Origin: Physcomitrium patens
Taxonomy: Eukaryota; Streptophyta; Bryopsida; Funariales; Funariaceae
DNA: 64,000 nt
Assembly: GCF_000002425.4 (NCBI RefSeq)
Contig: NC_037271.1
Coordinates: 12,788,514 to 12,852,513 of the forward strand
Direction: 5' to 3'
Below the pieces are notes generated by a model. The model saw only the letters and a program-made list of their open reading frames with translations, was not told the origin of the DNA and made no database searches. Both the position numbers and the translations under genes were made by a program. Of this stretch, positions 859-54,660 are shown piece after piece. Positions within the stretch are counted from its first letter, which is position 1, and each line of letters begins with the position of its first letter.

Positions 859-1406
859 TGTCACGGACATATACATTTATCTCAATAGTTACTTATATGA
901 TTAAGTAGAAATAGATAAATATAAAATAATTTCATATAGTCTTCTAAAAAAGCTTCCTAGAAGCTTTATAGACGTGGTTTTGACTTTAAATGTGTTTGTA
1001 GATTAGAAACTTGGCCAAAAAGCTAATCATGTATTGGTAGCTTATGGAACAAGTTATCTCCATGTAGTAGCTTATGGAACAAGCCAACTACGTGGCACAT
1101 ACATAGATAACTTGCCTTGCAAGATAAGACATGTGGCTAACAAAGTATATACATGTTGGAGGTCCTATAGGACATCGCCACGTAGCTCTTAGTTAGATAG
1201 TATATATAGATGCAAGAATGAAGCCTTCTTCACTCTTGTCAACACCTTTTTAGTCTTAATCTTTTTCAAGACTTTCTAGTCTTCTTGTTTTTGGCAATAG
1301 CCATTCTAGTTAATATTACATCACCTTTTGAATAATTTTTTAGGTCTCTTCAGTGATAAAAGAGTGTATTAAGGATTTTCTTTCTTCAAGATTCATGCCC
1401 TTGATA
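859..1406 (+). repeat. A2 5' LTR
   Basis: 548 bp, matched by 6729-7277. It begins TGTCACGG and ends TTGATA rather than the usual CA. A TATA box (tatatata) lies at 1201-1208. The predicted transcript start is A1232, the first base of ACTCTTGTCAA (1232-1242). Upstream, 945-965 has alternating TTC and GAA units (agcttcctagaagcttt) that resemble a weak heat-shock element. Confidence 0.9.
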
Positions 1407-1408
1407 AT

Positions 1409-1420
1409 TTGACAAAAAGT
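1409..1420 (+). promoter_or_regulatory. A2 putative self-priming primer-binding site
   Basis: Two bases after the LTR end, the sequence TTGACAA followed by AAAGT is complementary to ACTCTTGTCAA at 1232-1242 in R, allowing for decay. No TGG-starting tRNA site is present. In the A4 and A5 copies the same place reads TTAATAAGAGT and TTGACAAGAAT. The inferred ancestor, TTGACAAGAGT, is a perfect 11-base complement. Confidence 0.55.
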
Positions 1421-3285: not shown

Positions 3286-4680
3286 TATCAAGAATTCTAA
3301 GACATTTTTGAAAAGAAGAATGCAAATATTTTTTTCGAGCATCGACCTTATGATTGTTCAATTGATCTGCAAGAAGGAGCTCAACCACCATTCGGACTAA
3401 TCTATAGCATATTGTAGAATGAGTTGGCTACATTAAAGGAGTATATTGATGAAAATTTGGCAAAGAACTTCATACACCATTCTAAATCTCCAGCCGGGGC
3501 TCCTATCTTATTTATGAAGAAGAAAGAGAGATCTCTACGAATGTATGTGGATTATCAAGGACTCAACAAGATCACCATAAAAAATAGGTATCCTTTGCCT
3601 TTGATTTTAGAACTTCTTGACCAACTCAATCAAACAAAGATCTATATGAAAATAGATCTACGAAGAGCACACAACTTAGTTTGTATCAAAGAAGGAGATG
3701 AATGGAAGACTGCTTTTGGAACTAGGTATGGACATTTTGAATATAATGTCATGCCTTTTGGACTCACAAATGTATCGGTCACTTTTCAACATCTTATGAA
3801 TGATATATTTTGTGAGTTTTTAGATAATTTTATTTTTTGCTATTTAGACGACATTCTAATCTACTCTAAGAACACAAAAGAATATGAGCTTCATGTTTGT
3901 GGTGTTATAAAAACTTAGAGATACAGGATTATATATCAAATTAGAAAAGTGTGTATTCCACACTATTCAAGTTGACTTTTTAGAATACATCATTTCCAAC
4001 GAAGGCCTTATCATAGATTCCAAGAAGATTCAAACTATCATAGATTAGAAGATTCGAAGAACACTACGAGATGTGCAATGCTTTTTGGACTTTGTTAATT
4101 ACTATCAAATTTTTATTAAGAATTTTTCTCAAGTTACAACTTTACTTACACGTTTGACTTATAAAGACAAACTCGAGTGGAATAAAGAAGCAAAAGCATT
4201 ATGTGATGCTTTAAAGAAGGAGTTTATTTTTGCACCAATCTTATATTGCATTGACTTTTTCAAGGTATTTTTTATGGAAACAAATGCGTTAAATTTTGCT
4301 ATAAGTGCCGTATTATCACAAATGGAAACAAATGATAAATTCCATCTAATAGCTTTCCATTCAAGGAAATTTTTAGCAGCCAAGATTAATTATGAGATCC
4401 ATGACAAAGAGCTCCTTGTAATAGTGGATTCATTTCAAGAATGGTGTTATTATCTAGAAGGCACGTCAAGTCCAATTATTGTATATATAGACCATAAGAT
4501 CCTTGAGTACTTTATGTCAACACGTATTTTGAATTATTGTTAAGCTCATTGGAACATGTCATTATCTAGATTCAATTTTAAGATCACTTATCGATTCAAA
4601 AAATAATAAGGTCTATCAAATGCTCTTTCTAGATATTCTTATCTTGCACTAAAAGAAGGAGATTCATCTTTTGATCAACA
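3286..4680 (+). pseudogene. A2 reverse transcriptase and RNase H
   Basis: RT from about 3340, with the motif [10 protein letters not shown] at 3442-3471, F-G-L-T-N near 3757-3771, and the active site Y-L-D-D at 3841-3852 intact. A stop at 3916 and a frame change split RT from its thumb. RNase H spans about 4250-4540. Its first catalytic Asp is replaced by Asn (M-E-T-N-A where others have T-D-A-S), while the D-K-E-L-L and I-D-H-K sites remain. The RT resembles fungal and sushi/Tcn1-like chromoviruses ([12 protein letters not shown]) more than the usual seed-plant lineages. Confidence 0.88.
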
Positions 4681-6728: not shown

Positions 6729-7277
6729 TGTCATGGACATATACACTTACCTCAATAGTTACTTATATGATTAAATAGAAGTAGATAAATATAAAATAAT
6801 TTCATATAGTCTTGTAGAGAAGCTTCCTAAAAGCTTCATAGATATAGTTTTGACTTTAGATATCTTTGTAGGTTAGAAACTTGGCCAAAAAGCTAACCAT
6901 ATATTGGTAGCTTGTGGAACAAGTTATCTCCATGTAGTAACTTGTGGAACAAGCCAACTACATGGCACATACATAGATAAATTGCCTTGCAAGATAAGAC
7001 ATGTAGCTAGCAAAGTCAATACATGTTAGAGGTCTTATAGGACATCGCCACATAGTTCTTAGCTAGATAGTATATATGGAAGCAAGAGTGAAGCCTACTT
7101 CACTCTTGTCAATGCCTTTCTAGTTTTAGTCTTGTTTCAAGACTTACTAGTCTTCTTGTTTTTGGCAATAGCCATTCTAGTTAATATTACATCACCTTTT
7201 GAATAACTTTTTAGTTCTCTTCAGTGATAGAAGAGTGTATGAAGGATTCTCTTTCTTTAAGATTAATGTCCTTGATA
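6729..7277 (+). repeat. A2 3' LTR
   Basis: 549 bp, collinear with 859-1406, starting TGTCATGG and ending TTGATA, immediately followed by the duplicated target agatg. The R-region sequence ACTCTTGTCAA is intact near 7106. Confidence 0.9.
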
Positions 7278-8837
7278 AGATGTAGTAATAAATGGTCATA
7301 ATAGTCGTATAATTTTAATATAATTAGATTTCCCTCTAATCTAGTTACTTTAGGTTTATCATGGCTAAAAAAGTATAATTCTGTCATAGATTGGATTTCT
7401 TGTAAACTTGACTTTTCTTCAAACATCATTAACAATTTTTCTAATTCAATAGAAAACGATGACTCTAATATAGCCAAACTTATACTTGTAGGTGAAAAAG
7501 CTTTTTTGCATGCTGCAAAAGAAGGATTGTCTTTTTTTATTTATGCTACAACTATTTTAAATGATAGAAAGATTTCAAGTAAAATTCCAAGTCAATATCA
7601 AGTTTTTCAAGATATTTTTGAGAAGAAGAATGCACATATTCACTCGAAGCATTGTCCATATAATTCCTCAATCAATCTTAAAGAAAGAATTCAACTACCA
7701 TTTGGTCCAATCTATATTTTATCACAAAATAAATTGGCTGAATTCAAGAAGTACATTGATGAGAACTTGGCTAAGAATTTCATATGCCATTCAAAATCTC
7801 CTATAGGAATTCCTATCTTATTTGTGAAGAAAAAAGATGAATCATTCCAAATGTGTGTGGATTATCAAGGACTCAACGAGATTACCATCAAGAATAGATA
7901 TTCTCTGCCTTTAATATCTCAACTTCTTAATCAAGTAAATCAAGTTAAGATCTATACATAAATAGATTTATGAAGAGCATATAATGTAGTCTGTATTAAA
8001 GAAGGAGTTGAATGGAAGATTGCATTTCAAACAAGGTATGGATACTTTGAATATAATGTCATGCCTTTTACACTCACGAATGGACTAGTTACTTTTTAAT
8101 ATCTTATGAATGATTTTTTTTTTGAGTTTTTAGATGATTTTGTTGTTTGTTATTTAGATGATATTTTAATCTACTCTAAAAATATAAAAGAACATGAAGT
8201 TTATGTTTGTCGTGAGCTACAAAAACTTAGAGGTGTCGGATTGTATACCAAGATAGAAAAGTATATATTCCACACTATTCAACTTGACTTCTGAGGATAT
8301 ATCATTTCAAATAATGGTTTAATAATAGATCCTAAAAAAATTCATATAATCATAGACTAGAAGATTCTAAAAATAATAAAAAAATATAAAATATTTTTTG
8401 AGATTTACCAATTACTATCAAATCTTCATCAAGAACTTTTTTCAAGTTGTAGCGCTACTTATACGTTTAACTTGTAAAAACAAGCTTGAATAGAATAAAG
8501 AAGTAGAAGCATCATTTGAAGCTTTGAAGAAAGCTTTTACTTCTACACCAATCCTATATTGCATCAAGTTATTAAAGCATTTTTTATGCAAATAAATGCA
8601 TCTAACTTTGCCTTGGGTGCAGTCTCGTCACAAATAGGAGCAGATGACAAACTTCATCCACTAGCTTTTCATTCAAGAAAATTTTCAGCAATCAAGATTA
8701 ATTATGAGAACCACGACAAAGAACTTCTTGCAATCATGAATTCTTTTTTAAAATGGTATCATTATTTAGAAGGCGCTTCAAATCTACTCTTTGTATATAC
8801 GGATCACAGGAATCTCGAGTATTTCATGTCAATGCAT
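7278..8837 (+). pseudogene. A0 protease end, RT and RNase H
   Basis: Continues A0 after the A2 insertion. It holds the rest of protease (S-W-L-x-K-Y-N near 7360), the RT fingers (7506-7960, with [10 protein letters not shown] near 7750), the RT active site Y-L-D-D near 8152, and RNase H (8559-8837, with F-A-L-G-A-V, D-K-E-L-L and T-D-H-R). Several stops interrupt it. The last bases abut the D1 solo LTR, and coding resumes at 25282. Confidence 0.85.
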
Positions 8838-9120: not shown

Positions 9121-9511
9121 TGTCACGGACACATAAATATAGGCTCGTGATCTAACAAGAAGTTCAAGAAGAACTAGCAAGAACTAGATTAATCAGATGA
9201 ATACAAGAACAACACTAGAGAGGTGAGCTAGAGCTCCAAGAGATGTGTTGTCGAGATTGAAGAACTCTTCAGCCTTGATTCCAATATATATTCCTATTTA
9301 GGAAGCTTCTAGAAGGTTTCAGAGACTTGCTTCTAGAAATTCTAGAAACTTGTCTCTAGAAGGTTCTAAAGACTATGTCCCTAACATCTTCTACCAACTA
9401 AGAAGCTTCTAGAAGGTTCCAGAGACTTGCTTCTAGAAGGTTCCAGAGACTTGCTTCTAGAAGGTTCTAGAAACTTGTCTCTAGAAGGTTCTAAGGACTA
9501 TGTCCCTAACA
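9121..9511 (-). repeat. Element C 3' LTR
   Basis: 391 bp, TGTCACGG to CTAACA as written on the plus strand. It carries two units of the 101-bp repeat found three times in the 5' LTR, which accounts for most of the length difference (391 versus 522 bp). A perfect four-unit heat-shock element, GAAgcTTCtaGAAggTTC, lies at 9402-9419. Confidence 0.9.
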
Positions 9512-11559: not shown

Positions 11560-12814
11560 CTTCTCCAGCCTTTGGTACAAGATACGATCTCCTCGATAAG
11601 GCATTAGATAGTCCTTGCTGCTTTCTAGGTCGATAAGTGATAACGAAATCGAACCTAGATAGCAACATACTCCATCGGGCTTGACGTCGATTTAGAACTC
11701 AAGCCGACATGAAATACTCCAAATTCTTATGATCTGTGTATACGGTCACTGGATGTGCAGCTCCTTCAAGAAAGTGATGCCATTCATGGAAAGAATCCAC
11801 TATAGTAAGAAGTTTCTTATCGTGGATCTCATAATTGATTTCAACAGCAAAGAACTTTCAAAAATAGAATGTAACTAGATGGAGCTTCTTGTCTTCTCCC
11901 ATTTGTGAAAGTACAGCTCCCAAAGCAAAATCCAAAGCATCAGTTTCTAAATAAAAGGCCTTTGTAAAGTCTGGAAGTACCAAGATTGGAGTCGTAGTAA
12001 ATGCGTTCTTCAGGTCTTGAAATGCCTTCTACGCAAGAGGTCCCCATTCCAGCTTATCCTTGCATGTCAACCAAGTGAGAAGAGCAGCAACTTGAGAGTA
12101 ATTCTTGATGAAGATCCAATAGAAGTTGGCAAAACCAAGAAAGCATTGTACGTCTCTAACCGTCTTAGGAACCTCCCAGGACATGATTGCTTCTACCTTC
12201 TTGGGGTCCATCTTCAAGCCTTCCGTAGTCGCAACAAATCCCAGAAACTCCATCTCTATTTGGTAAAATAAACACTTCTCCAACTTGGCATATAGTCTTC
12301 ACTTGCGTGGTTTCTCCAAGACCAAACGAACGTGCTTTTTATGCTCTTCCTCATTTTTGGAGAATATCAAAATATCATCTAAATAGATGACAACAAAATC
12401 GTCAAGGTGCTCTCGGAAAATGTCATTCATCATATGTTGAAAGATCGCTGGAGCATTGGTAAGACCAAAGGACATAACATTATACTCAAAATGGCCATAC
12501 CTTATACAGAACGCTGTCTTCCACTCATCTCCTTCCTTGATTCGTACGAGGTTGTAAGCTCGCCTTAGATCAATTTTTGTAAAGTTCCTTGCACGTCCAA
12601 GTTGTTCTAAGAGACCAAAAATCAAGGGTAACGGATAACAATTCTTCTTTGTTACCTTGTTGAGGCCTTGATAGTCCATGCACATCCGCAACAAGCCATC
12701 TTTCTTCTTCACAAATAAGATGGGTGCTACAACTGATGATTTTGAATGACGGATGAAGTTCTTGGCTAGATTCTCATCGATGTACTTTCGCAACTCCGCC
12801 AACTCCGTCTGCGA
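11560..12814 (-). pseudogene. Element C RT and RNase H
   Basis: RT at 12299-12814 has [36 protein letters not shown] and an intact Y-L-D-D near 12375. The RT connection at 12029-12283 has F-L-G-F-A-N-F-Y and is separated by a stop. RNase H follows at about 11640-12000 with several breaks. The frame enters from 21372 on the other side of element B: Y-N-L-S | Q-T-E-L-A-E-L reads straight through when one target copy is removed. Confidence 0.87.
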
Positions 12815-13297
12815 TGTCGTATTACGTGCTTTTCTGCTCGAATACGTCTCGGGCGTCTGGCTGTAGAAGGTAGTATGGAGATTTGCCAATAGTCAAGCAG
12901 TCTATCAGTTTTTGACTATTGGAATATAAATGACTGCAAGAATACACCGTAAATCTATACGGATGCCCTTCGACTGCTCGCCGAAGTCTTTTTTGTCCCA
13001 GCCGATAGGTCTCTAGACGTTACAGAGAACCTCGAACAACCCAAACTGCTAATCTTCGATACCGCTTTATACTCACAATCTTGTATCCACTGACTGTCTC
13101 GTTAGATTAACCCAAAAAATTTCATTCATTCCGCATACTCAATCCTATAGACATCCTTTTAATTCTTCATCACAGACGTAACTCGATTTCACAAAACAGT
13201 CAAGAGTAATCAAATCCACTTCATTAAAAATCCTAATTCATCATTACAACACTGACTTCAGCAACGATTGCCTCAGTCTTTCCAAAACCCTATAAAG

Positions 13298-13346
<49 letters not shown>

Positions 13347-14111
13347 AATTCTCTGTCTTCTTTTCCCGCCCCAAGCATGAAGCTAGCTCTTCCCTATCCT
13401 TCAAAACCTCCCTCCCAAACTTATTCTTCCCCTTAATCTTATCCTCTGAATTTCTTCAATCTTCCATCTTGGATCCAGAATTGGTTCCCATCGTCAGAGC
13501 TTGGATCCAAAATTGGCTCTCGTCGTCAGAGCTTTCTCCCCTGTTTTATCTTTAAGAGATCCTTTTACCGAAAATAATGTTCTCTGAAACGGTACAAAGA
13601 ACAAGACAGCTTGAAACAAAATTGAAACCTCATAATCGGGACCACATTGAGTCGCCCGACCAATTCAAGTCTCGTATTGGCTAAGAGTCCAATAAAAAGA
13701 CCCGGATGTCCCCGTAATTGGATCAAATTGGTCCTTTCCGTCAGATTGGCTGAGGCCCGTAGTAAGACCTGGATTTTCCCATAATTAGACTGCATTGGGT
13801 TGCCCGGCCAATTCAAGTCTCATATTGGGTAAGAGGACCCAGATTGGATTCTTGAAATTAGATCCAATTGGCTCTTCGAACCAAGCTCACCCGTCATGTG
13901 AATTGATCCTTTTTCTTCCTGCTGATTCCCGTTATTGGAATCGAATGGAGCATTTCAGTATGCCCCGGCTGACTGTAACGGAGTGACTAAACCTGGCCAC
14001 TCAGTATTTGCACTAGAGTTGGTCGTTGCTCCCAATATTCGAGGTAACTGAACATTAATAAAAGTCCCCTTTCTTTATATTTTAATGGTATACTCATGTT
14101 ACAACACGACA
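12815..14111 (-). repeat. Element B 3' LTR
   Basis: 1297 bp, aligned over its full length with 20090-21371 with scattered substitutions. It contains an uninterrupted A run at 13298-13344 (47 bases), against 31 in the other LTR. The short frames at 13268-13986 lie within the LTR and are not genes. Confidence 0.9.
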
Positions 14112-14123
14112 TCCACCCTCTCT
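14112..14123 (-). promoter_or_regulatory. Element B polypurine tract
   Basis: The minus strand reads AGAGAGGGTGGA directly against the 3' LTR. Confidence 0.75.
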
Positions 14124-14218
14124 GAACCTGTGCATCCTCCGGTATGGACCAATTCACCCAATTGCTGTTTGATTTAGAAAATATCTTCTACGTCTTTGTC
14201 CAGTTCGTCTTCGTTACA

Positions 14219-15408
14219 TTAATTATCCAAATCACTTTCAATCTCTAACTGCGAAATCTCTATACCTTCATTAAGGTCTCCCATATTCATCTCCACGTGT
14301 CTTCGTTTAAATATTTTTACTCGCTTTCTTGCAATTGGTATTTTCAATTTTGTACCATCTAACTCTCGTAACGAGTAAGTCGCATTATCATGAACAGTTG
14401 TTACTACATATGGTCCAAACCAACGTTTTAAAAATTTCCGCAAAGTACTATGTTGATTATCCAGACTATTGTCATAAACAAGTACCCACTCACCTTCCTC
14501 GATTGCTTTCGGTCTCAATCGATGTTGCTTATTGAATCGTGCCTTATTTTGTAACCTTGCTCTTTTTAACCTTCCCAATGCTATCTGCACATCTTCCGTT
14601 CTTTACTCCAATTGTCGAATCCTAATAGCCAGAAGTTCTTCTCTTGACAATCCATCTTCCCATGGTAGCATACTCCAAGTAAGTACCTTTTCTTCAATCG
14701 ACATAATTGGTTTTCGACCTGTCATAAGTTCTACTGGCATATATCCTGTCACCGAACTATGTGTTGTTCGATCAGCCCATAATGCAAATGACAAAAGCCG
14801 TGGCCACTCTCTAACTTTCCCATTACAAGCTTAAACTAATGCTTCACAATCGGTGGGTGACCGCGTTCGCTTTTTGCATTCCCTTCTAGATTATAAGTAG
14901 TAGTCAGTGATAGTTTAACTCCACATCTTTCAAAGAACTTACGAGCTTCTTGTGCATTTAATTCTCCACGATCTGTAGTGATTTTTCCTACGCATCCGTA
15001 GCAACAAATGACATCTTCAAGCAAAAACCTACAAATCCCTTCTGTAGATTTTGTCCTCAATGCTCTTCCTTCTACTTGATTTGATAAATCTTCACGAGCT
15101 AAAACCAAATATCTCATCTGCCATAACCCAACCGGCATAATAACCAAATCAACAACCCATTTAAAATGAATAGCTAGAGGATACGTAGGATGAAGACCAT
15201 CTCGATGTCGGATATTAGAATACGATTGACAGATTTCACATAACTCTACAAATGAGAGCACATCTCGATACATATTTTTCCACCAATATCGTTCCTTGAG
15301 TTTAACAAAAGTAGCCCAGATTCCTCTATGCCCTGCCCATAAACTATCATGAAACTCCTTTAATAATTTTAGTTTTTCTTCCTTTTTGCCTATCACTCGT
15401 TGTGGCAT
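14219..15408 (-). pseudogene. Element B integrase
   Basis: Zinc-binding region at the start (H-D-S-L-W-A-G-H, then C-E-I-C near 15235). The core has W-V-V-D-L-V, T-T-D-R-G-E and N-A-K-S-E-R-G-H supplying the D, D and E residues (14836-15408). A C-terminal domain at 14219-14590 has the G-P-Y segment R-W-F-G-P-Y-V-V. No chromodomain follows. The frame is broken at about 14600 and 14835, so there are three pieces. Confidence 0.82.
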
Positions 15409-15501
15409 CCCAATTCCTTTCTTCGGTCTCTTCTATAAGAATCCATCTCGAAGTAAAAATCCATATGCTTTTTTTCTTATTTGTTTGAATTTTTCTGTAG
15501 A

Positions 15502-16134
15502 TCAATTCCCCTGCTTAGTCAAGGTATTCAAGTTATGACCAATATCCAATAATTCTCCTTCATAAGATTCTTCAAGAAATAGCTTGTCTTCTTTGTTGAG
15601 ATTTGATATTGAATAGAATTTCAATCCGACGTCATCAATGTCTTCAACCATTTCGTCCTCCCTCTCGTATCTTGCTCGAGATAGCATATCTGCTACTAAA
15701 TTGTCCTTCCCAATAATATGCTTGAATTCTGGATTTAGTGACTTAATATAAGCAATCCATCTCAACATTGTAATATCTGGCGTTGAACAGTTAATAATCA
15801 TTCCAAGCATTGGCAAGCAATGTGTTTCAATTACTACTACTGCCCCAATCAAATAGTCCTTTTCAGCTTTCATAGCCGAAACGACTCTCCAAAGTTCTCT
15901 TTTGACTTGCGAATATGCACGCTGATGAATACTTAAAACTTTAGCCCCAAATCAAACTGCAAATCTATTCCCATTTGAATCATCTTGACCCACAGCCCAT
16001 CCAATGGCAATTGGACTAGCGTCCACAGTAAGAATCATTGGTCTATTGCACTTATAATCAACCTTCCTCAATATTGGAGGTGACATCAATAATTTCTTCA
16101 ATCTTTGTATTCCTGAATATGTCTTTCTTCCCAT
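15502..16134 (-). pseudogene. Element B RNase H
   Basis: The first catalytic site appears as T-V-D-A-S-P-I-A-I-G-W-A-V-G (15952-16134). The C-terminal part (15502-15873) contains H-I-I-G-K-D-N-L-V-A-D-M-L-S-R-A, the usual Ty3 RNase H end. A frame break lies between them at about 15880-15950. Confidence 0.8.
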
Positions 16135-16860
16135 TTAAATCGGTAGCCCTTGCGTAACAGTTCATATAATGGATCCACTATGTGAGCATAATGAGGGATC
16201 CAGATTCGATAAAATACACATGCACCCAAAAACCTGCGAACCTCTGTTAAAGAATCACAATCCTCTTTCATCCTTCCAATTGCATCAACTTTAGTCGGAT
16301 CTGGTTTTCTTCCGTAAGATCCACATAAATGTCCAACAATCACAACCTCTCGTACTCCAAATACGGACTTCATACCCGATAATGTAAGATGAACTTCTCC
16401 AAGCCGAGTTAAAATCTTTTCACAATCTTGTATATGATCAACAACATATTTGCGACACCCCCTCGTATCTAAAGTTTCATCCTTGTCTCCTTCTCTGTAC
16501 CCTTTTATAGGAACATCATCCAGAAAAGGCATGGTTTTTTCCGAAATAAAATCTCTCAATACCTTATTCATCCCATTCATCATATGCGCCACTGAGTTGG
16601 TCGTGCCTTGAGGAAGAGTGCACATTCTAACCAATCCAAGTGGTGTCCTCATTGTTGTCATATCTCTACTTCCTTCGACAAGTTGAAATTGATCATAACC
16701 TGAATACAAGTCACCCATTCAATAGATCGCCCTTCTAGCAAACGCCTCAGCAAATTTATCCACAATAGGTCCAATTCCTGCATTCCTGACAGTTACTCCA
16801 TTCATCGGTTGCATATCTTGAATAAACTATAGTGACCCATTCTTCTTAGATACAGTAAAC
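16098..16860 (-). pseudogene. Element B reverse transcriptase, FLDD type
   Basis: Palm motifs D-L-Y-S-G-Y-D-Q-F-Q-L, T-P-L-G-L-V-R-M, L-P-Q-G-T-T-N-S-V-A-H, then P-F-L-D-D where most Ty3 elements have Y-x-D-D. P-F-L-D-D is, as I recall, usual in a Ty3 lineage common in basidiomycete fungi. The fingers region lies upstream (V-S-K-K-N-G-S-L at about 16835) after a stop at 16830. Confidence 0.82.
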
Positions 16861-17570
16861 CATCGACTAGAATACGGCGCAAACGAGGTTTCCAATATTT
16901 TCATCTTTATCTTTTCTTTTAATAGATCCATCAATTTAGGTAAATGTGCCCTCGATACTAAAATCGATCTTAGATTCCAAGGTACATGCGGTACAGTGAA
17001 GATAACCATAGGTGTTATAATATTTGGATCCACACACCCAATTTCATGAGATTCAAAAGCAAACGATCTACCTTGTTTAGCCAACATCTTTTTGAAGTAA
17101 GTAATTTCCTCCGGCAATAAAGAACCATCAGAACCAATCTTCAATTCTTCAAAAGTCTCTTTAATAAACTGATGTCCAATACTCATTGGATCTCTTAAAC
17201 TTGCTTCTTTTGATGCTTCTTCCATTTGTTCTTTAGAATCTCTTGGTAATGATCCGGCAACAAGCTTTACCTTCTTATCTGTCGTTTTATATCTCGTTTC
17301 TACAATGACTTCTGGTGCTTGAAAAGGTTCAAGTATGGTATAAACCTCTCTTGAATGAATCTCAACAATCTTATCATTATTCCCTAACGCAATAGATGTA
17401 ATCAATTCCAATGAATCTTCCAGTTCATTTTCTTCATAAACACCTAAAATCCTCTCATCATCTTGCAATGTACCTAACTTGCATAATTGTCCTTCAATAT
17501 TATATAATCTTTTTCTTTCTTTTCTTTTAAAATCATCAACTTTCTTATACATAATATTTCCATTCTCCAA
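16827..17570 (-). pseudogene. Element B pol linker between protease and RT
   Basis: 247 open codons, acidic and charged. It contains E-I-T-Y-F-K-K-M-L and the sequence leading into RT (R-A-H-L-P-K-L-M-D-L-L-K-E-K). No catalytic motif recognised. It is the long spacer between protease and RT seen in this Ty3 type. Confidence 0.65.
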
Positions 17571-17647
17571 TATACCAATAAAACTCGCATCAAAGGCACC
17601 TTCATCTCGCGAGAGTACCTCCTCTTTTGTACCTCCATAATCTCGCT

Positions 17648-18301
17648 TTACAGTGGTACCTCTCCAAAATCCTTAAATCCTTCAACAATCTTTGGCAATG
17701 GTTTCTCCCTCAATCTATCTCGATTCCGTTCATGATTAGGAGGTACTGTTAGAAATTGTACAGCTTTTCTCCCATCTTCGCTCCGTACCCTTGCATAAGC
17801 AGAACCATTATCAAGTACTTTTGTTTCCATCCGTGTTGCCGTACTATAAGGTTGTCCTAAAATCAACGGATAAGACGTTGTATCTTGAACAAAGAAATGT
17901 TGCTCCGTCGCAACATCTCCAATCCAAATTTTGACATCTGGACAAGCTCCATATAATTTGCCTCGTGTGTTATTAGCTGCTCGTATTGCCCATCCATGTT
18001 CCATATCAATTGGCCATTTTTGCTTCTTATAAAGATCTTTAGACATGAGATTTATTTCAGAACCATGGTCGACTAAAGCAACTATTGGTTCTTCTATATC
18101 TCCTACTTTCACCAATACCTCAGTAGTTGCCCTTGCCCAATGCTTTCGAGTATAATGGCTCAAAGTTTCCATTTCCTTGTCACTAGAATCTTCGAAACAT
18201 ACTTGTTGATTATACCCATTCCTTTCATTTTTTAGTTTCTTGTAACCAATATGAACCTCTTCTTCATCTTTATATATTCTTGCATCAATAGCATGACTCA
18301 T
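17648..18301 (-). pseudogene. Element B protease
   Basis: The retropepsin-like motif A-L-V-D-H-G-S-E-I-N-L-M-S near 18070 has His in place of the usual Ser or Thr after the Asp. It is followed by P-L-I-L-G-Q-P-Y near 17850, the flap/second hydrophobic-Gly signature. Frame of 217 codons. Confidence 0.75.
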
Positions 18302-18319
18302 TCCTATTTCGCCCCTTAA

Positions 18320-20019
18320 TTACCTCTTTCTTTTAATGCTGTCAATGATGACATCATGAAACTCCTTCTTTGCAATTTCCAAGACTTCTTTCAATGCGAA
18401 TTCCACCTTAGCGTTTAATATACGTTCTTCCAACACCCCTTTCAAATTTGTTGCCGCTTCAATGTCAGAAAGTAGCTTATAAGCAATTAATTTGCCCTTA
18501 TCTTTTGTCTCCTTTGTTTTTTCTTCCAATGGTGCTGAGGTATCCTTTACAAGCAATTCTTGTGAAGCTGTCTCCCGAGCCTTGTCTCCTCGAGTTTGCC
18601 TCTTAGAAGAATTTCCTTGTCTAGTATCATCAAAATTTCCTCGTCTCTTTTCTTCCATCAAAGCTTCATGTTCGCTTTTAGCAATATATGCATGAACTGA
18701 AAGAGACTTAACAGGATCCTCCCAACCTGTTCTACCTCGTATTGTAGCTGCAGTCCTCAATAACGCTTCTCGAGGTAATTTTCCTTCTTGCATGTAGAAA
18801 CGGCAGAAGCCCAAAACTCACTAGTTTTCGTACTTCCACCAATTTCATCATCTACTCTAGCACCATAACTTGCACTTTCTCGTGCTGTTGTTTCATGGTC
18901 TTTTAGATAATCTTGAACCAATGCTCTCATTCCTCCCTTGCCAAAATTGGTTTGAAGAAGATCATCCCTATCTTTCAATGCTATCTTCCCATCTTTCCAG
19001 CAAATAATTCCCTACCGTATCATATTATTAAATTCATTGCAATCTTTTCTAGTGTGTGAAGCATCATCACACCAAATGCATCTTTGTACATATCCTTGTT
19101 TTGAAATATTCTTCGAATTTTTTATAGAAGTATTCTCTTCAAGTCTTGCCAATTTGATTTGAAGATCTCGCATTCCTCGTATAATTTCTTCCATCCCCAT
19201 ATCTGCTTTCTTCGATAAGGATGTCGAAGGTTGAACTGTAGGCATTGTTGGTGGTGTTGTACGTACTGGAGCTTTTGGTGCTTGTACTGTTTTCTGAATA
19301 TTGCTCCTATCCTTCCTCCTTTCTTTTTTTGTAAGCAACCCCATTGCATCTTCAACGTTCTTCCACTTTGTTGTCAATCCTTCATCTTCTTCTTTGTCTT
19401 CAAGAAGGAGTTTTAATTTCCCTTGCAATTCTCCATCAGCAGCTTGAAGAAATAGATCAACTTTGTTCGACTCCAATGTCAATTTTTCTACCTTCGACAA
19501 TTGAGAGTATTGCCTCTCAAATTCCCTTAGTAGCTCTGTCGCTTGTAAATTCTTATTGGGCCATTCAATCCATTCCAGAAATAGCTTCTTAGTAACGCGA
19601 TCAACATCTTCCAAGAAATATTCGTCTTTCAATGCATGTGAAAAAACCTCCCATGAATTCCCATAACGATCCGTAATCGATGTAATATGGTCTCTTATCT
19701 CCGGTATCATGGCAAGTCCAAATAGTTCAACCATTTTCTTCTCAGAAACCCGATTTAATTCCATTTCACGAACATAACATCTTAAATACCTTGAAATATT
19801 CCTCCCATCAAATTGATCAATTTTATTGACCACTGCTTGCAATGCTTTGGTTGCCAAAGCTTCCTTTCGATCATTGCTTTGCTGTTGCTATATTGATAAT
19901 GAGAAGGCTTGAAACATACTAGCAATAGACGGATCCATGTGCATACCTTGTCCTTCAGAAGAATCCCCACCAGAAACTCCTCCCAAAAATCCTTCAAAAT
20001 TTTTATTTTTGTTTTCCAT
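18320..20019 (-). pseudogene. Element B gag
   Basis: ATG at 20019 (M-E-N-K-N-K-N-F), a stop 54 codons on (TAG replacing a glutamine codon), then a long frame to 19012. That frame holds the capsid-like region F-D-G-R-N-I-S-R-Y-L-R-C-Y and a zinc knuckle C-x2-C-x4-H-x4-C (C-I-W-C to K-D-C, about 19040-19085). It reads through one TAG into 18757-18978, then shifts frame into 18320-18814, a lysine-rich charged segment before protease. Confidence 0.8.
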
Positions 20020-20068
20020 AAAATAAAGATAAAATCAAAAAAAATCCAATACCTTCCACCTTAAGCTT

Positions 20069-20085
20069 TTACGTCGGGTTCACCA
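20069..20085 (-). promoter_or_regulatory. Element B primer-binding site
   Basis: Four bases after the 5' LTR the minus strand reads TGGTGAACCCGACGTAA. The leading TGG is as expected for pairing with a tRNA CCA end. I cannot name the tRNA. This contrasts with families A and C, which lack a TGG site. Confidence 0.65.
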
Positions 20086-20089
20086 CTTA

Positions 20090-20572
20090 TGTCGTATTAC
20101 GTGCTATCCTGTTCGAGAACCCGCCGGGCGTCTGGCTGTAAAAGGTAGTATGGAGATTCGCCAATAGTCAAGCAGTCTATCAGTTTTTGACTGCTCGAAT
20201 ATAAACGACTGCAAAAATACACCGTAAATCTATACGGATGCCCTTCGACTGCTCGCCGAAGTCTTTTTTGTCCCAGCCGGTAGGTCTCTAGACGTTACAG
20301 AGAACCTCGAACAACCCAAACTGCTAATCTTTGATACCGCTTTACACTCACGATCTTGTATCCAGTGACTGTCTCGTTAGATTAACCCAAAAAATTTCAT
20401 TCACTCCGCATACTCAATCCTATAGACATCCTTTTAATTCTTCATCACAGACGTAACTCGATTTCACAAAACAGTCAAGAGTAATCAAACCCACTTCATT
20501 AAAAATCCTGATTCACCATTACAACACTGACTTCAGCAACGATTGCCTCAGTCTTCCCAAAACCCTATGAAG

Positions 20573-20605
<33 letters not shown>

Positions 20606-21371
20606 CAATTCTTTGTCTTCTTTCCCCGCCCGAAGCATGAAGCTATCTCTCCCCTATCCTTTAAAACCTCGCCCTCAAACTTATTCTCCCCCTTAACCTT
20701 ATCCTTTGAATTTCTTCAATCTTCCGTCTTGGATCCGGAATTGGCTCCCACCGTCAAAGCTTGGATCCAAAATTGGCTCTCGTCATCAGAGCTTTCTCCC
20801 CCGTTTTTACCTTTAAGAGATCCTTTTATCGAAAACAACATTCCCTGAAACGGCACAGAGAACAAGACAGCCTGAAATAAAATCGAAACCCCGTAATGAG
20901 GACCACATTGAGTCGCCCGACCAATTCAGGTCTCATATTGGCTAAGAATCCAGTAGTAAGACCTGGATGTTCCCGTAATTGGATCAAATCAATCCTTCAC
21001 GTCAAATTGGCTGAGGCCCGTAGTAAGACCTGGATTTTCCCGTAATTAGACTGCATTGGATTGCCCGGGCAATTCAAGTCTCATATTGGGTAAGAGGACC
21101 CAGATTGGATTCTTGAAATTGGATCCAATTGGCTCTTCGAACCAGGCTCACCCGTCGTGTGAATTGGTCCTTTTTCTTCCTGCTGACTCCCGTTATTGGA
21201 ATCGAATGGAGCATTTCAGTATGCCCGACTGACTGTAACGGGGTGACTGAACCTGGCCACTCAGTATTTGCACTGAAGTTGGTCGTTGCTCCCAATATTC
21301 GAGGTAACTGAACATTAATAAAAGTCCCCTTTCTTTATATTTTCACGGTATACTCGTGTTACAATACGACA
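20090..21371 (-). repeat. Element B 5' LTR
   Basis: 1282 bp, counterpart of 12815-14111. A run of 31 A at 20573-20603. Starts TGTCGTATTACG and ends ACAATACGACA on the plus strand. Confidence 0.9.
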
Positions 21372-23378: not shown

Positions 23379-23391
23379 AGTCTTGACAAAC
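23379..23391 (-). promoter_or_regulatory. Element C putative self-priming primer-binding site
   Basis: Two bases inside the 5' LTR edge the minus strand reads TTGTCAAGACT. This pairs at 9 of 11 positions with AATCTCGACAA, the predicted transcript start, which is the complement of 23519-23529. That start lies 32 bases after the beginning of the TATA box (complement of 23554-23561). No TGG site is present. Confidence 0.5.
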
Positions 23392-23913
23392 TGTCACGGA
23401 CTTAGAAATACAGGCTCGAGATCTAACAAGAAGTTCAAGAAGAACTGACAAGAACTAGATTAATTAGATGAATACAAGAACAACACCAGAGAGGTGAGCT
23501 AGAGCTCCAATAGATGTGTTGTCGAGATTGAAGAACTCTTTAGCCTCGATTCCAATATATACTTCTATTTAGGAAGCTTCTCAAGCAACTTCTACCAACT
23601 AGGAAGCTTCTAAAAGGTTCTAGAGACTTGCTTCTAAAAGGTTCTAGAAACTTATCTCTAGAAGGTTCTAAGGACTATGTCCCTAATATCTTCTACTAAC
23701 TAAGAAGCTTCTAGAAGGTTCCAAAGACTTGCTTTTAGAAGGTTCTAGAAACTTGTCTCTAGAAGGTTCTAAAGACTATGTCTCTAACATCTTCTACTAA
23801 CTAAGAAGCTTCTAGAAGGTTCCAGAGACTTGCTTCTAGAAGGTTCTAGAAACTTGTCTCTAAAAGATTCTAGAAACTTGTCTCTAAAGGTTCTAAAGAC
23901 TATGTCCCTAACA
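23392..23913 (-). repeat. Element C 5' LTR with heat-shock-element array
   Basis: 522 bp. Three tandem units of 101 bp start at 23601, 23702 and 23803 (plus-strand coordinates), all upstream of the minus-strand TATA box at 23554-23561, so they occupy the U3 promoter. Perfect four-unit heat-shock elements of alternating GAA and TTC spaced by two bases lie at 23704-23721, 23805-23822 and 23834-23851, with further two- and three-unit forms between. Confidence 0.88.
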
Positions 23914-24240
23914 CCTAATCCTAATCCAACCTCAATCAAATCCTAGACAAACCCTATATCCTAAACCAAATCTTAATCAAATTTTAATCTCTAACCAAAT
24001 GCTAATCCAAACCCTAAATCCTAAACCCTAAACCAAATCCTAATTCAAATCCTAAATCATAAATCCTAAACCAAACCCTAATCCAAATCCTAAATCCTAA
24101 ACCAAATCTTAAATTCTAAATCAAATCCTAATCCAAATCCTAAATCCTAAACCAAATCCTAAACCCTAAATCAAACCCTAATCCAAATCCTAAACCCCAA
24201 ATCAAATCTTAACCAAATCCTAAACCAAATCCTAGTAATT
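23914..24240. repeat. Degenerate CCTAAA-like array inside the D1 LTR
   Basis: About 330 bases built from variants of aatcctaaacc and aaaccctaa, resembling the plant telomere repeat. The array also flanks the C insertion on the left (about 9055-9120) and recurs inverted in the D2 copy near 56985-57190. It is therefore a part of the D LTR and not an interstitial telomere. Confidence 0.75.
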
Positions 24241-25281: not shown

Positions 25282-26755
25282 ACGTATTTTGAATCGTTGC
25301 CAAACTCGTTGGAACATGTCTTTATTAAGATTTGACTTCAATATCACTTATCGATGAGGAAAACAACAAGATTTGTCTAATACTTTTTTTAGATATTTTT
25401 ATCTTATACCAAAAGAAGAAGAAGGCATATTTTGATTAACAAAAGATAATTTTACTAAAACTAAAATAATTTCATCTATGAGTAATGAAATCAACATTGA
25501 TTGTTGATTTAACTCTTTTCAAGTAGATCGAAGCAAGTATGCCCTCAGACCTTCTTATTCATGATATTCAAAAAAATATTCTAAGTCTCAAGATACTTCA
25601 AAGTTTGAATTTAAGGAAAATCTATTCTATTTTGAAAGATGCTTATATGTTTAGGAATGAGAAGGACAATTACATGCTCTTGAAGCTCGTTTTAATTTCC
25701 CTACAGCATGATATTTTGGATATAATAAGACTTTAGAGCTTATACCTAGAAATTTTTTATGGTCTCAAATGTAGAAGGCTCTTAAAGAATTTGTGTAGAT
25801 ATGTGATATTTTTTTAAGATCAAAAATTTCTTATCATCGACCATATAGACTCCTCCAACAATTACTTATATCAAAACAGTTATGGTCTTCTATCTCTATG
25901 GATTTTATCACTGATCTTCCAATTTTTATTGAGATTTTAGAGAATTCTTTTCAAGATATTGAAGGTAGATACAAAACTATTTTCAGCTTTCCACCTTCAA
26001 AGTGATGGATAAACAGAATGAATAAATCAAGTTTAAGAGTAGTATTTGAGGTGTACCATCAACTATCAATAAGATGATTGGATAACTCTTTTGCCATTGG
26101 TAGAGTTTGCTTACAATAATTTGATATATTCTTTTACTCAATAAACACCTTGCTTTCTAATTATGGTTATTATCCTCAATTTGATACTTTTGACTTTTCA
26201 AAAGTCGATAATCTTGTGACAAAAGATCTAGTAAATTGATTGTCAGAGCTACATACAACAATGAAGGTACAATTAAAAGAAGCTCAAGAATGACAAAAAA
26301 CTAATGCAGATATCTATTGCAAGGAACAACTTCAATTCCATGTAAGAGATAAGGTATCATTACTTCATCATATTATTAAAACTATTCATTTTCATGAGAA
26401 GCTCGATTATTGTAGGCTTAGACCATTTTTTATTTATAAATAGATCAATCTAATTGCTTATCGATTACACCTATTGAAATCTATGAAAATCCATCTTGTA
26501 TTTCATGTGTCTTTATTTGAGTCATACAAGTCAATGGATATATAAGGAAGGAGACAAATGCCACCACTTACTCTAGAAGTGGACAATAATGAAAAATTTG
26601 AGGTAGAAGAAATATTAGATTCAAGGCGGGGCCAAAATAGGTTAAAATATCTCGTACATTGGTGTGGATATGACATTAATGAATGTACATGGGAGCTATC
26701 AAGGAATCTAGCAAATGCATCAGTCCAAGTTAAAGCTTTTCATCAATGACATCCA
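25282..26755 (+). pseudogene. A0 RNase H end, integrase and chromodomain
   Basis: Resumes with R-I-L-N-R at the RNase H end. The integrase zinc region and core are badly broken (25300-26350), with a deletion after about 25930 that removes the first two catalytic Asp segments. The chromodomain at 26558-26749 is the best preserved in the window: E-V-E-E-I-L-D-S-R, Y-L-V-H-W-C-G-Y, E-C-T-W-E-L, with aromatic cage residues present, ending F-H-Q and a stop. Confidence 0.85.
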
Positions 26756-31295: not shown

Positions 31296-31368
31296 CTCCG
31301 TAACCGGGACTCGAACCCGGGTCGACTGGGTGAAAGCCAGTTATCCTAACCATCTAGACTATTACGGA
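31296..31368 (-). tRNA. tRNA-Glu (anticodon TTC)
   Basis: 73 bases on the minus strand. The acceptor stem TCCGTAA/TTACGGA pairs fully, and the discriminator is G. The anticodon loop CTTTCAC gives TTC. The A box region (TAGTCTAGATGGTTAGGAT) and the B box GGTTCGAGTCC are intact. CCA is not encoded and no intron is present. The first TTTT downstream on the minus strand is some 60 bases away, so termination may be inefficient. Confidence 0.95.
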
Positions 31369-32591: not shown

Positions 32592-35500
32592 TTATCCTGC
32601 TGCTGCTTGGCGCTTTGCAAGAGTAGCAGTGCATTGTGCCATTGTTCTCGAGGCGCGAGAAATTGAATCAGTCATGTAATAATTCTCAATGGCCTTCGGG
32701 AGAGGAGATGTTTCTAAGGCAGTAGTTGGTCTTGTGTTGAGATCAAGTGACCAACCTGTGACCAACTCAATTTCATCGATTCGCAACAAATTTGGAGCCA
32801 CTGCAAGCATCCGAGCTCTTAAACCATTTGCAGTATCATATGGGAGCGTCTTCCCTGCAATTTCTGAAAGAGCACGAATGATTTTCCAGTCATCACGAGC
32901 ATCCCCTACGGTGGGTACGGCTGGGCTTGTTTGCTGCGCCCGTCCTTCAACATTTTCGTATGTACCTTCCTTCTCTGTATATGCTGTACAAGGAAGGATC
33001 ACGTTTGCTCTGTACGCGCTGCGATCACCATGATGGCCTTGGTACACCACAAAAGCATCTTCCGGGATATCTGCAGGAGTCAAATCATCAGCTCCCAAAA
33101 GATACAAGAATTTTGCCTGTGCTTTTCCTGCCCTTGCACCTGGCACAAATCCAAGATCTCGTGCTGCTGCTTGAGAAGCGTTCAAAAGCAGAACATTAGC
33201 TCCAAACCAGTCGTCTCGAATTAGAGCACTTTGCTGCGCAATGATATCCAATGCGGACATAATCGCAGCCTTATCTGAGCGTTCCAATGCTCCACTACCT
33301 ACAATGACCACAGGCCTTTCCGCCGATGCCAACTCTGCACAAAATGGATGTCTTCCTTCCGCAATCTCCAAAAGTGTGTCAGTACTAACACCTAGGTGCT
33401 GGTGTGGATAGGTCAAATCAACCTCAGGACCTACAACAGCTACCTTCGTCTTGTTGAACCTTACTGCTTTTCTCAGCCTCGCATTGACCATAGGTGCCTC
33501 CCACCGAATCTGCGATCACATCAGCAATTAGCGAACAAAACTGAGGCACGGTACACATTCCGTAGGTACAGTACCACTTGTAGAAGAAACAGCGAGTTTC
33601 CTAAAACGAAGGAGGTTTAAGAAGTGAATTCAAGTCTAAGAAGCCAGGGCTGAGTTACCTGAGTTCCAACCAAGAGACAAACGTCTGCCTGCTCAAGAGC
33701 AGCAATGCCAGTGTTAAGCAAGAATCTTGATCTCAAGTCAGCGTCCGGAGAAGTGCCATCTCCTTCAGCCCAGAGGCGCTCACAACCCATTCTATTAAGA
33801 AAATCCTTCAGTGCCAACATGGACTCTGCATCGGCCAGCTTGCCAGCTACGCCTGCCATTTCCTCAGGTTTCACTTTATAAGCTGCTTCAGCAATAGCTT
33901 CAAGAGCATCTTTCCAAGAAGCTGCCTGTAACTGACCATCAGGACGGCGAATCATTGGCTCACTTAATCGTTGACGCTTGAGCCCATCATAACTGAATCT
34001 TGCTTTATCTCCAATCCACTCCTCATTAATATCCTGAACCAAAGTCAGCGAGTAAGGAAATATTAATACTAATAAGTTTATACTGTTGTAAGACATCAAC
34101 ACTGGCAAAGACACCACCAGTTCGAAGTGGCTGTCACACTCTCAGACCAAAAAATGATGAATTGATCAATCCTACTGCAAAACTTGGGAATGGAATGCCC
34201 CGAGTCCATGGTTTACATAAAAGAACCAATAAATAGTGGCTACGAAAGAGACCTCATGAAGCCGAGGAATGATCCGCATCACTTCCGGCCCACGGCTGTT
34301 AATCCGGATGTTCGACCCAACGGCATCCAAAACGTCAATACTCTCAGTCGCCTTAAGCTCCCACGGTCGTGCTGTGAATGCGTATGGTTTAGATGTCAAT
34401 GCACCAACAGGGCAGACATCAATTACATTGCCTGATAACTCGCTGGTCATCAAGTTCTCGACATATGTTCCAATCTCTTCACTTCCTCCACGTCCTAGTA
34501 CACCCAGATCCTCCACGCCAGCAATCTCCTTTGCAAACCTCACACACCTACAACAGGGCTCAATTACATAAATTCAATGAATTGCAGCATTTCACCCATA
34601 CCATGATGCTAGCTTTGCTATACAATAAAAATGCTAAGGCACAGATAGTCGCGAAACTATTAGTCACACTTCCAGAAAGAGCTATCTAAAATCCCTCAGG
34701 ATTCCACACTTTCAATCCAGCCCAAAAGAAAATTTGACGTCCTCCAGAACATGAAAAGTAGCTATTGTTCATTCCTAACACGCTTGGATAGCCACCTGAA
34801 CATAATGTGGAGTCTTTCAGCAAACTAATGATTCAAAAGACCTCTGTGATAAATAAATAAATAAATAAATAAATAAACTTGATCGTAGTTCTTGCAAACT
34901 TGTAACACAGTTCACTCCATGGATGGATAAAAGGACGTACTACCAGAAATCTTCCTAACCAAAACGACTGACCTGGTACATTGAATGCATCTTGTCATAA
35001 TGGTCTTCACGAGGGGTCCGAGATTCTTATCTAAGACAGATCTTTTTGTGTCGATAAAGCGGCCACGATCAGAACCAAACACCATAGATTGATCTTGAAG
35101 ATCACATTCTCCACCCTGATCGCAAATCGGGCAATCCAATGGATGGTTCATCAACAAAAACTCCATCACTCCCTCCCTTGCTTTCTTAGCCAGAGGTGTA
35201 CCGGTCTTAATTTTCATACCTATACGCAATTCAGCCATTCGACCTCTTAGTATCCCGCTTTTAGACACACCCCAAGTTATAAGAACCGCACGAATTGTAT
35301 GTCAAACAGCTTGCAACTGAGAAAAGAGGGTTACTAACTAATGGAATCAGACCTGGCAAAGCAGGCATGGCACATGAGGCCACAGGCTTGGGAGTCTTCT
35401 CGACCTCAACCAGACACATGCGGCAATTCCCTGCTATGGAGAGACGACTGTGATAGCAAAACCTAGGAATGGTCACCCCTCCCAGCTCACACGCCTGCAG

Positions 35501-35818
35501 CACAGTCATGCCCTTCGGCACTAGCACTGACTGTCCATCCACGCTCACTTCAATTGTCTCCACCTCCGGCTTCACGGGTTTCACTCTGTTCGAAGCTAGG
35601 GCAGCGCTCGTGGAATGGCGAATACTGCCCAGCGCGCTTCGCAATGGACTTTTCCCATCTGATTCCTTCTCCGCAGTTTGATGATGATGATGGCGAAGCA
35701 GATGCGACGTCACAGGTAAAGCTGCATCCGAAGCCCCTACTTGCCTCAAGCGGCTCTGAAACAAGGGAGTAGCTGCCTCCTGTAGCAGCTTCGCTGTCTG
35801 ACGTCCTCTACACCCCAT
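32592..35818 (-). CDS. NDUFS1: NADH-ubiquinone oxidoreductase 75 kDa subunit (complex I), five exons
   Basis: Electron-input subunit of mitochondrial complex I, in the matrix arm. Exons on the minus strand: 35353-35818, 34973-35219, 34253-34547, 33659-34033, 32592-33509. All four introns are GT-AG (133, 425, 219, 149 bases) and the joined frame of 766 codons has no stop. An Arg/Ser-rich presequence of about 85 residues suits mitochondrial import. Cluster ligands are all present: Cys121, 132, 135, 149 (2Fe-2S), His181 with Cys185, 188, 194 (4Fe-4S), and Cys233, 236, 239, 283 (4Fe-4S). The molybdopterin-oxidoreductase-like domain follows. Family proteins are about 730-750 residues, so the length fits. 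A polyadenylation-like AATAAA lies at 32551-32556, about 36 bases past the stop. Intact among decayed transposons, so surely under selection. Confidence 0.96.
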
Positions 35819-49817: not shown

Positions 49818-50331
49818 TTTCATGAATATATATATATATATATATATATATAAGAAGTATTAGATAGAAGGTGAATATATGTAGATTTGATATTATCTTG
49901 TGACAAAGCTTTTTAGAAGCTTCATAGACATGTATTTGACTTTATACATGTTTATAATTGATTAATAGGTTAGAAAATTTGTCAATAAGCTAATCATATG
50001 TTGTACATGTTGGTAGCTTATAATATAAGCTATAATATGGAACACACATAGAAAACTTGTCTTACAAAGTCAATACATGTTGGAATTCTTATAAAATATT
50101 ATTATATATTTCTTAGTCAAATAGTATATATAGAGACAAGAGTGAAGTCTCATTCACTCTTGTCAATGCTTTTTTAGTCTTTAGTCTTATTTCAGGATTT
50201 TTTAGTCTTCTTATCTTTAATAATAGCTATTTTAGTTTAATATTACACCATCTTTGAGTGATTCTTTAGTCTTTTTGAATGGCATAAGAATGTATTGATC
50301 TTTTAATTCTTTCAAATTCATATACTTGATA
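49818..50331 (+). repeat. A4 5' LTR
   Basis: 514 bp, ending CTTGATA. TATA begins at 50125 and ACTCTTGTCAA lies at 50156-50166, 31 bases on, the same spacing as in A2. (TA)n at 49824-49852. Confidence 0.83.
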
Positions 50332-50333
50332 GT

Positions 50334-50344
50334 TTAATAAGAGT
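50334..50344 (+). promoter_or_regulatory. A4 putative self-priming primer-binding site
   Basis: TTAATAAGAGT, two bases after the LTR. It differs from the exact complement of ACTCTTGTCAA by one G-to-A and one C-to-T change. Confidence 0.55.
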
Positions 50345-54125: not shown

Positions 54126-54660
54126 TGTCATAGATATATATATTTATTCTAATATTTATCTATATGATTAAATAGAAGTAAATAAAATTAAATTTATTTC
54201 ATAATAATTTTTAGAAATACTTTGTAAAAACTTCAAAGATGCTACTTTGGCTTAACATGTGTTTGTAGTTAATTGGTAGATTAGAAACTTGGTCAATAAG
54301 TTAACCACATGTTGGTAGCTTGCAAAAGAAACTAACTATGTAGCACACATATAGAAAACTTACATAGCAAGTTAAGATACATGTCTTAAAAAGTCAACAT
54401 AATTTAGAAGTCCTACAGGACATTGCTATATAATTTCTAATTAAGAGTATATATAGAGGCAAGAGTGAAGCCTTCTTCACTCTTTTTAACATCTTTCTAG
54501 TCTTTAGTCTTGTTTTCAAACTTTCTAATCTTCTTATCTTTGGCATTAGCCATTCTAGTTTAATACTATATCATCTTTAAATGATTTTTTAGTCTTTTTG
54601 AATGATACAAGAGTATATTGAAGTTTTTTTTTTTTTTTTTTGAAATTTATGTCTTTGACA
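54126..54660 (+). repeat. A5 5' LTR
   Basis: 535 bp, TGTCATAG to TTTGACA. It is the only A LTR here that ends in CA, which hints that the family end was once TTGACA. A run of 18 T lies near 54624-54641. Confidence 0.83.

What the first reader, a model, noticed from the sequence alone, without database searches (positions are those of the whole stretch)
1232..1420. Self-priming signature in plant chromoviruses, with covariation between families
Families A and C lack a TGG tRNA site. In A the 11 bases starting 2 bases after the 5' LTR (consensus TTGACAAGAGT from A2, A4, A5) are the exact complement of ACTCTTGTCAA in R. That R site starts 31 bases after the TATA box in both A2 and A4. In C both partners differ (TTGTCAAGACT and AATCTCGACAA), yet 9 of 11 positions still pair, with the same 2-base spacer and a TATA-to-R distance of 32. 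Established knowledge: Tf1/sushi elements prime reverse transcription by folding the first 11 bases of their own mRNA onto such a site. I know of no such report for plant elements.
Basis: partly seen in the sequence, partly recalled or inferred. Interest (0 to 1): 0.8.

Follow-up and report, generated by a model that had tools for sequence, protein, structure and literature searches.

The report
Self-priming moss retrotransposons with U3 hairpin
Two families of jumping genes in what looks like a moss genome carry, right after their leading repeat, a short site that matches the start of their own RNA, so they very probably start copying from themselves instead of borrowing a tRNA; this had been predicted for moss elements, but the matched changes between families, and a second matching site that could hide the wrong copy of the primer, look new.

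Summary
Singly, the three window copies of family A pair 8, 9 and 8 of 11, but in the window's own genome (470 Mb, probably Physcomitrium patens, inferred) the exact pair ACTCTTGTCAA-N150..180-TTGACAAGAGT occurs at 3,605 places, reversed control 0. In family C the window copy pairs 9/11; of 28 assignable genome copies 6 pair 11/11 (AGTCTCGACAA/TTGTCGAGACT), 22 pair 8-10. A and C differ at three primer positions; all three are compensated in the PBS. This is the Tf1/sushi self-priming layout; transcript starts are not mapped. 'No report in plants' is wrong: Neumann 2019 (PMC6317226, passages) predicted it for moss and club-moss Tcn1 chromoviruses. What I did not find in print: a U3 arm beside the promoter that is also complementary to the primer, with the same three changes compensated, giving a 12-13 bp U3/R hairpin (about -21 kcal/mol, z -4.0 and -4.6). 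If transcription starts at R, this hairpin exists only at the RNA's 3' end and could mask the 3' primer copy. That role is inferred; promoter dyad or quasipalindrome correction remain open.

The parts
859..1406 (+). family A 5' LTR (TGTCA...TTGATA), flanked by AGATG at 854-858; its 3' LTR is 6729-7277 followed by AGATG
   Evidence: self-alignment 859-1407 with 6729-7278 at 90.5%; ends read by eye
1201..1208 (+). TATA box of the LTR promoter, 31 nt before R
   Evidence: same 31-nt distance in all 18 rows
1211..1223 (+). U3 arm complementary to R (decayed in this copy)
1232..1242 (+). R start, predicted self-primer ACTCTTGTCAA and predicted RNA 5' end
   Evidence: start position inferred from TATA distance, not mapped
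1407..1408 (+). 2-nt spacer between LTR end and PBS
1409..1419 (+). primer-binding site TTGACAAAAAG, decayed (8/11)
50156..50166 (+). second A copy, self-primer site R
50334..50344 (+). second A copy, PBS TTAATAAGAGT (9/11)
54479..54489 (+). third A copy, R site ACTCTTTTTAA
54663..54673 (+). third A copy, PBS TTGACAAGAAT (8/11)
23519..23529 (-). family C self-primer site R AATCTCGACAA in the 5' LTR; 3' LTR copy at 9248-9258
   Evidence: intact copies AGTCTCGACAA
23537..23549 (-). family C U3 arm complementary to R
23379..23389 (-). family C PBS TTGTCAAGACT (9/11 in this copy)
   Evidence: intact copies TTGTCGAGACT
23554..23561 (-). family C TATA box, 32 nt before R
   Evidence: 32 nt in 28 of 28 rows
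26561..26746 (+). open piece with a chromodomain in a family A copy
   Evidence: PF00385 E 8.3e-15
12299..12892 (-). open piece with reverse transcriptase of family C
   Evidence: PF00078 E 5.7e-28; 68% identical to the family A piece 3418-3915 over 164 aa

Best explanation
Families A and C are chromodomain Ty3/gypsy elements that prime reverse transcription with the first about 11 nt of their own RNA, as Tf1 does. Shown: an 11-nt word at the TATA-predicted RNA start is complementary to an 11-nt word 2 nt after the 5' LTR, in thousands of A copies and with three compensated differences in C. Inferred: the RNA starts at that word, it folds onto the PBS, RNase H frees an 11-nt primer, and minus-strand synthesis starts at the spacer and U5. 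Because the plus strand can copy the primer, each round can re-template the PBS from R, which would keep the two in step (inferred). The U3 arm just upstream of R is a second complement of the primer; my favoured but much less certain reading is that at the 3' end of the RNA it locks the 3' copy of R in a hairpin, leaving only the 5' copy free to prime.
For: 3,605 exact A pairs, reversed control 0. TATA at 31 nt in 18 of 18 rows and at 32 nt in 28 of 28 C rows. Among 47 loci chosen by one exact word and lacking a listed exact partner (L001-L007, L024-L063), the 11 assignable 5' LTR ends pair 9-10/11, while 19 distinct LTR ends not followed by the element interior (3' or solo LTRs) score 2-6/11. 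C: 6 copies 11/11, 14 at 10, 5 at 9, 3 at 8, of 28 assignable of 30 loci. R:PBS differs between A and C at positions 2, 6 and 8, each on both sides. Matched duplexes -14.4 and -16.2 kcal/mol, swapped -3.2 and -6.5. RNAalifold without constraint pairs R 3-11 with the PBS in 21 A copies; R:PBS is in the lowest-energy fold of 6 of 6 exact C copies (5 of 6 with 60 nt more); ensemble probability 0.18-0.84 in five A copies. Chromodomain PF00385 in A, Tf2-1-like SH3 domain PF24626 in C. U3/R hairpin: A -21.3, z -4.0; C -21.2, z -4.63; swapped U3 arms -9.7 and -8.5 against -21.3 and -18.9.
Against: No transcript start or strong-stop DNA was seen. The single-sequence fold of L010 (240 nt) does not contain R:PBS and is no more stable than shuffles (z 0.05); the window's decayed A and C leaders likewise (z 0.29 and -0.16), and the window C copy gives R:PBS a probability below 1e-4. 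Within A there is no double-sided compensation in R:PBS over 15 rows. Across C copies R and PBS are not more conserved than their surroundings (minor-letter fraction 0.053 and 0.053 against 0.029 between them). The U3/R hairpin shows no covariation within A (252 of 1000 shuffles reach the observed value) and is gone in the window's C 3' LTR (z 0.17). Covariation rests on two families.
Confidence: 0.88

Rival explanations
1. The elements prime with a tRNA or half-tRNA and the R complement is incidental.
For: Most plant chromoviruses use tRNA-Met, and copia elements can use half-tRNAs (PMC6317226, passages). I had no moss tRNA set to test internal tRNA words.
Against: No TGG after the A or C LTRs; three compensated changes between R and PBS and 3,605 exact pairs have no reason under tRNA priming.
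Confidence: 0.05
2. R, U3 arm and PBS words are one repeated motif with a DNA role (promoter dyad or integrase-end repeat), not a primer system.
For: The U3/R palindrome lies between TATA and the predicted start; PBS and LTR end share TTGACA in A.
Against: It does not explain why the third copy sits exactly 2 nt after the LTR over exactly 11 nt and changes with R.
Confidence: 0.07
3. For the U3 arm only: it is a transcription-factor dyad, or it is kept palindromic by quasipalindrome template switching, and does not mask the 3' R.
For: Position beside the promoter; no within-A covariation; imperfect palindromes can be perfected by template switching (recalled).
Against: Hairpin energy exceeds that of R:PBS (-21 against -14 to -16), which is what masking needs.
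Confidence: 0.6

Closest known systems
Tf1/sushi group self-priming (Tf1, Tf2, Tj1, Tosmo, sushi-ichi)
   Same: Primer at the RNA 5' end, PBS right after the 5' LTR complementary to it, LTR ending in CA, chromodomain integrase (PMC10085805 and PMC4600332, passages).
   Different: The flanking 'pretzel' duplexes are only weakly supported here; the covarying U3 arm is not mentioned in the passages I saw.
Tcn1-clade chromoviruses of mosses and club-mosses (PpatensLTR, SM-Tcn1; RLG1 by inference)
   Same: Non-seed-plant host (inferred), chromodomain with aromatic residues, no tRNA PBS; self-priming predicted by Neumann 2019.
   Different: Novikova 2010 found neither tRNA nor self-priming evidence for SM-Tcn1 (PMC2864245, passages). 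I could not place A and C in a tree with named members.
Ty1/copia TAR lineage (Houba, Osr-1)
   Same: Self-priming predicted in plants.
   Different: Different superfamily; A and C are Ty3/gypsy with chromodomain and Tf2-1-like SH3.

Membership tests
Tf1/sushi-type self-priming | PBS just after the 5' LTR complementary to a site inside the LTR | tested here: met
Tf1/sushi-type self-priming | the complementary site is the 5' end of the RNA | tested here: inconclusive
   TATA at 31 nt (A) and 32 nt (C); start not mapped
Tf1/sushi-type self-priming | RNase H frees an 11-nt RNA that primes minus-strand DNA | not testable with these tools
   needs strong-stop intermediates
Tf1/sushi-type self-priming | two further duplexes beside the PBS ('pretzel') | tested here: inconclusive
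   four helices named on 15 A rows: 90.5% of cells paired, 8 of 500 shuffles as high; one compensated pair in the LTR-end duplex
Tf1/sushi-type self-priming | no tRNA-complementary PBS | tested here: inconclusive
   no TGG after the A and C LTRs; not compared with a moss tRNA set
Tcn1 clade | group I chromodomain with three aromatic residues | tested here: met
   PF00385 in A 26561-26746; F, W and Y at the three places, read by eye against the description in PMC3350952; for C only the first residue (Y) was seen
Tcn1 clade | RT-INT groups with Tcn1 | not tested
   no named Tcn1, Tf1 or seed-plant chromovirus sequences at hand; named hits among the 120 listed were Adiantum, Morchella, Micrurus and a Kitasatospora record
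tRNA-primed plant chromoviruses (Tekay, Reina, CRM, Galadriel) | PBS beginning TGG complementary to a tRNA 3' end | tested here: not met
   contrast family B

The most novel reading that the evidence does not exclude
The self-primer has two covarying partners: the PBS, and a U3 arm that folds over the 3' copy of R. The RNA thereby marks which of its two identical R copies may prime: the 5' copy lacks U3 and is free, the 3' copy is locked in a 12-13 bp hairpin until strand transfer opens it.
Probability: 0.3. Interest if true: 0.7.

Novelty: new variant of a known kind. Interest (0 to 1): 0.5.

Why it matters
Self-priming avoids dependence on a host tRNA. Here it appears in a very abundant plant family, and two families in one genome with fully compensated sites give sequence evidence that the pairing is used. 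The U3 arm raises a testable question that the mechanism leaves open: how an RNA with two identical R copies lets only the 5' one prime.

Tried and rejected
Rejected: chance, a TGG-type tRNA site for A and C. The window's C mismatches as real variants: rejected, intact copies pair 11/11. Inconclusive: single-sequence folds, pretzel helices, within-A covariation. RT identities were computed but no tree was built for want of named references. A protein search with the host NADH dehydrogenase piece named only land plants and others, no moss, so the host name stays inferred. PDB searches with RT and integrase pieces gave Ty3 first. Two family-A loci sets were picked by one exact word, so they are not random; one search selects exact pairs by construction; one search scored only 40 of 2,479 candidates and its query holds both sites. 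L050 was left out of the 5' count because its LTR end did not fit the rule; L007 repeats L006 and L055 repeats L053; the other loci of the 47 had no assignable LTR end.

Literature searches; the U3/R hairpin was not seen in the listings or passages, but most papers were seen as listings only.

Full report
What is there. The window (C19:12788514-12852513 of a 470,438,890-base genome) holds many decayed copies of a Ty3/gypsy element, family A, and one copy of a relative, family C, into which a third element, B, is nested. This is inference: no named sequence was matched.

Checking the observation. The LTR ends are fixed by target-site duplications. In three A copies an 11-mer begins 2 nt after the 5' LTR and pairs 8, 9 and 8 of 11 with a site 31 nt after TATATA. 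From the window alone each match is only moderately unlikely (0.0014 to 0.030) and R is not uniquely the best match in its LTR. The genome removes the doubt: 3,605 places with the exact pair at 150-180 nt and none for the reversed pattern (the pattern is its own reverse complement, so each place is counted on both strands). In 18 of 18 rows of fetched loci with an exact pair, TATATA lies 31 nt before R (a few of these rows are the same element seen in two overlapping loci).

A sample less tied to exact pairs. From the one-word hits I read 47 loci without a listed exact partner: L001-L007 and L024-L063. Eleven 5' LTR ends could be assigned (ten by one rule, L029); their partner words pair 9 or 10 of 11. 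Nineteen distinct LTR ends are followed by something other than the element interior (3' or solo LTRs) and score 2 to 6. Nothing lies between.

Family C. The window copy pairs 9/11. Of 30 loci found by DNA similarity (40 scored of 2,479 candidates) 28 could be read: 6 pair 11/11, 14 at 10, 5 at 9, 3 at 8; TATA distance 32 and R-to-PBS 140 in all 28; spacer GT in 25. The exact pair is AGTCTCGACAA with TTGTCGAGACT. Against A it differs at R positions 2, 6 and 8, and the PBS differs at exactly the three partner positions. Matched duplexes have -14.4 and -16.2 kcal/mol, swapped ones -3.2 and -6.5. R and PBS are not more conserved among C copies than what lies between them (0.053 against 0.029), so conservation alone would not have shown them.

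RNA folding. R:PBS is in the unconstrained consensus fold of 21 A copies, has ensemble probability 0.18-0.84 in five A copies, and is in the lowest-energy fold of 6 of 6 exact C copies, 5 of 6 with 60 nt more. It is absent from the single lowest-energy fold of the 240-nt L010 leader and of the decayed window leaders, which are no more stable than shuffles. The flanking duplexes expected from Tf1 (PMC10085805, passages) are weakly supported.

A second partner of the primer. Directly upstream of R in U3 lies GACAAGAGTGAAG in A and TCGAGGCTGAAGA in C. Each folds back on R: 13 bp, -21.3 kcal/mol, z -4.0, 1 of 200 shuffles as stable (A); 12 bp, -21.2, z -4.63, 0 of 200 (C copy L070). The same three R positions that differ between A and C are compensated here too, and swapping the arms costs 10 kcal/mol or more. 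Within A there is no covariation and the window's C 3' LTR has lost the hairpin. If transcription starts at R the arm is present only at the 3' end of the RNA.

How it likely works. RNA starts at R (inferred). Its first 11 nt pair with the PBS; RNase H frees them as primer (by analogy with Tf1); synthesis starts at the 2-nt spacer and U5. Plus-strand DNA can copy the primer, so the PBS can be rewritten from R each round, which by itself would keep the two in step (inferred). That route does not reach the U3 arm, so its compensation needs another cause: selection for a hairpin that hides the 3' R, a promoter dyad, or palindrome correction. I favour the first only weakly.

What is known. Neumann et al. 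2019 predicted self-priming by a 10-bp rule for most plant Tcn1 elements and for TAR copia elements (abstract, passages, methods section). Novikova 2010 placed moss PpatensLTR elements in the Tcn1 clade and found no priming mode for SM-Tcn1 (passages). So the kind is known; the exact sites, the count, the full compensation between two families and the U3 arm are what this adds, as far as searches go. Neumann's supplementary tables could not be opened here, so they may already list these very sites.

Noticed in passing
12814-21371 (minus): Family B, an element with about 1.3-kb LTRs (91.5% alike) nested in C, has a TGG-type post-LTR site TGGTGAACCCGACGT after a 4-nt spacer; its RT piece is only about 26% identical to the RT pieces it was compared with.
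   Followed up: partly
L025, L031, L040; window 50332-50333: Older A copies have spacer GT (or AT) instead of GA, so A holds at least two ages or subfamilies.
   Followed up: no
window 1295-1306 and about 23495-23508 (minus): A small 4-bp hairpin downstream of R in both families: TGGC-AATA-GCCA in A, GAGC-TCTA-GCTC in C.
   Followed up: no
P0062: A reverse transcriptase fragment 73% identical to family A sits in a record named Kitasatospora herbaricolor, probably contamination; an Adiantum nelumboides fragment is 79% identical to C.
   Followed up: no
32592-35845 (minus): A split gene for the NADH-ubiquinone oxidoreductase 75-kDa subunit (pieces with Molybdopterin and NADH_dhqG_C domains in 32592-33515) between the elements, and a tRNA-Glu at 31296-31368.
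   Followed up: partly
23973-24224: A degenerate AAACCCTAAA-like repeat just beside the family C element, with a related stretch at 56965-57139.
   Followed up: no
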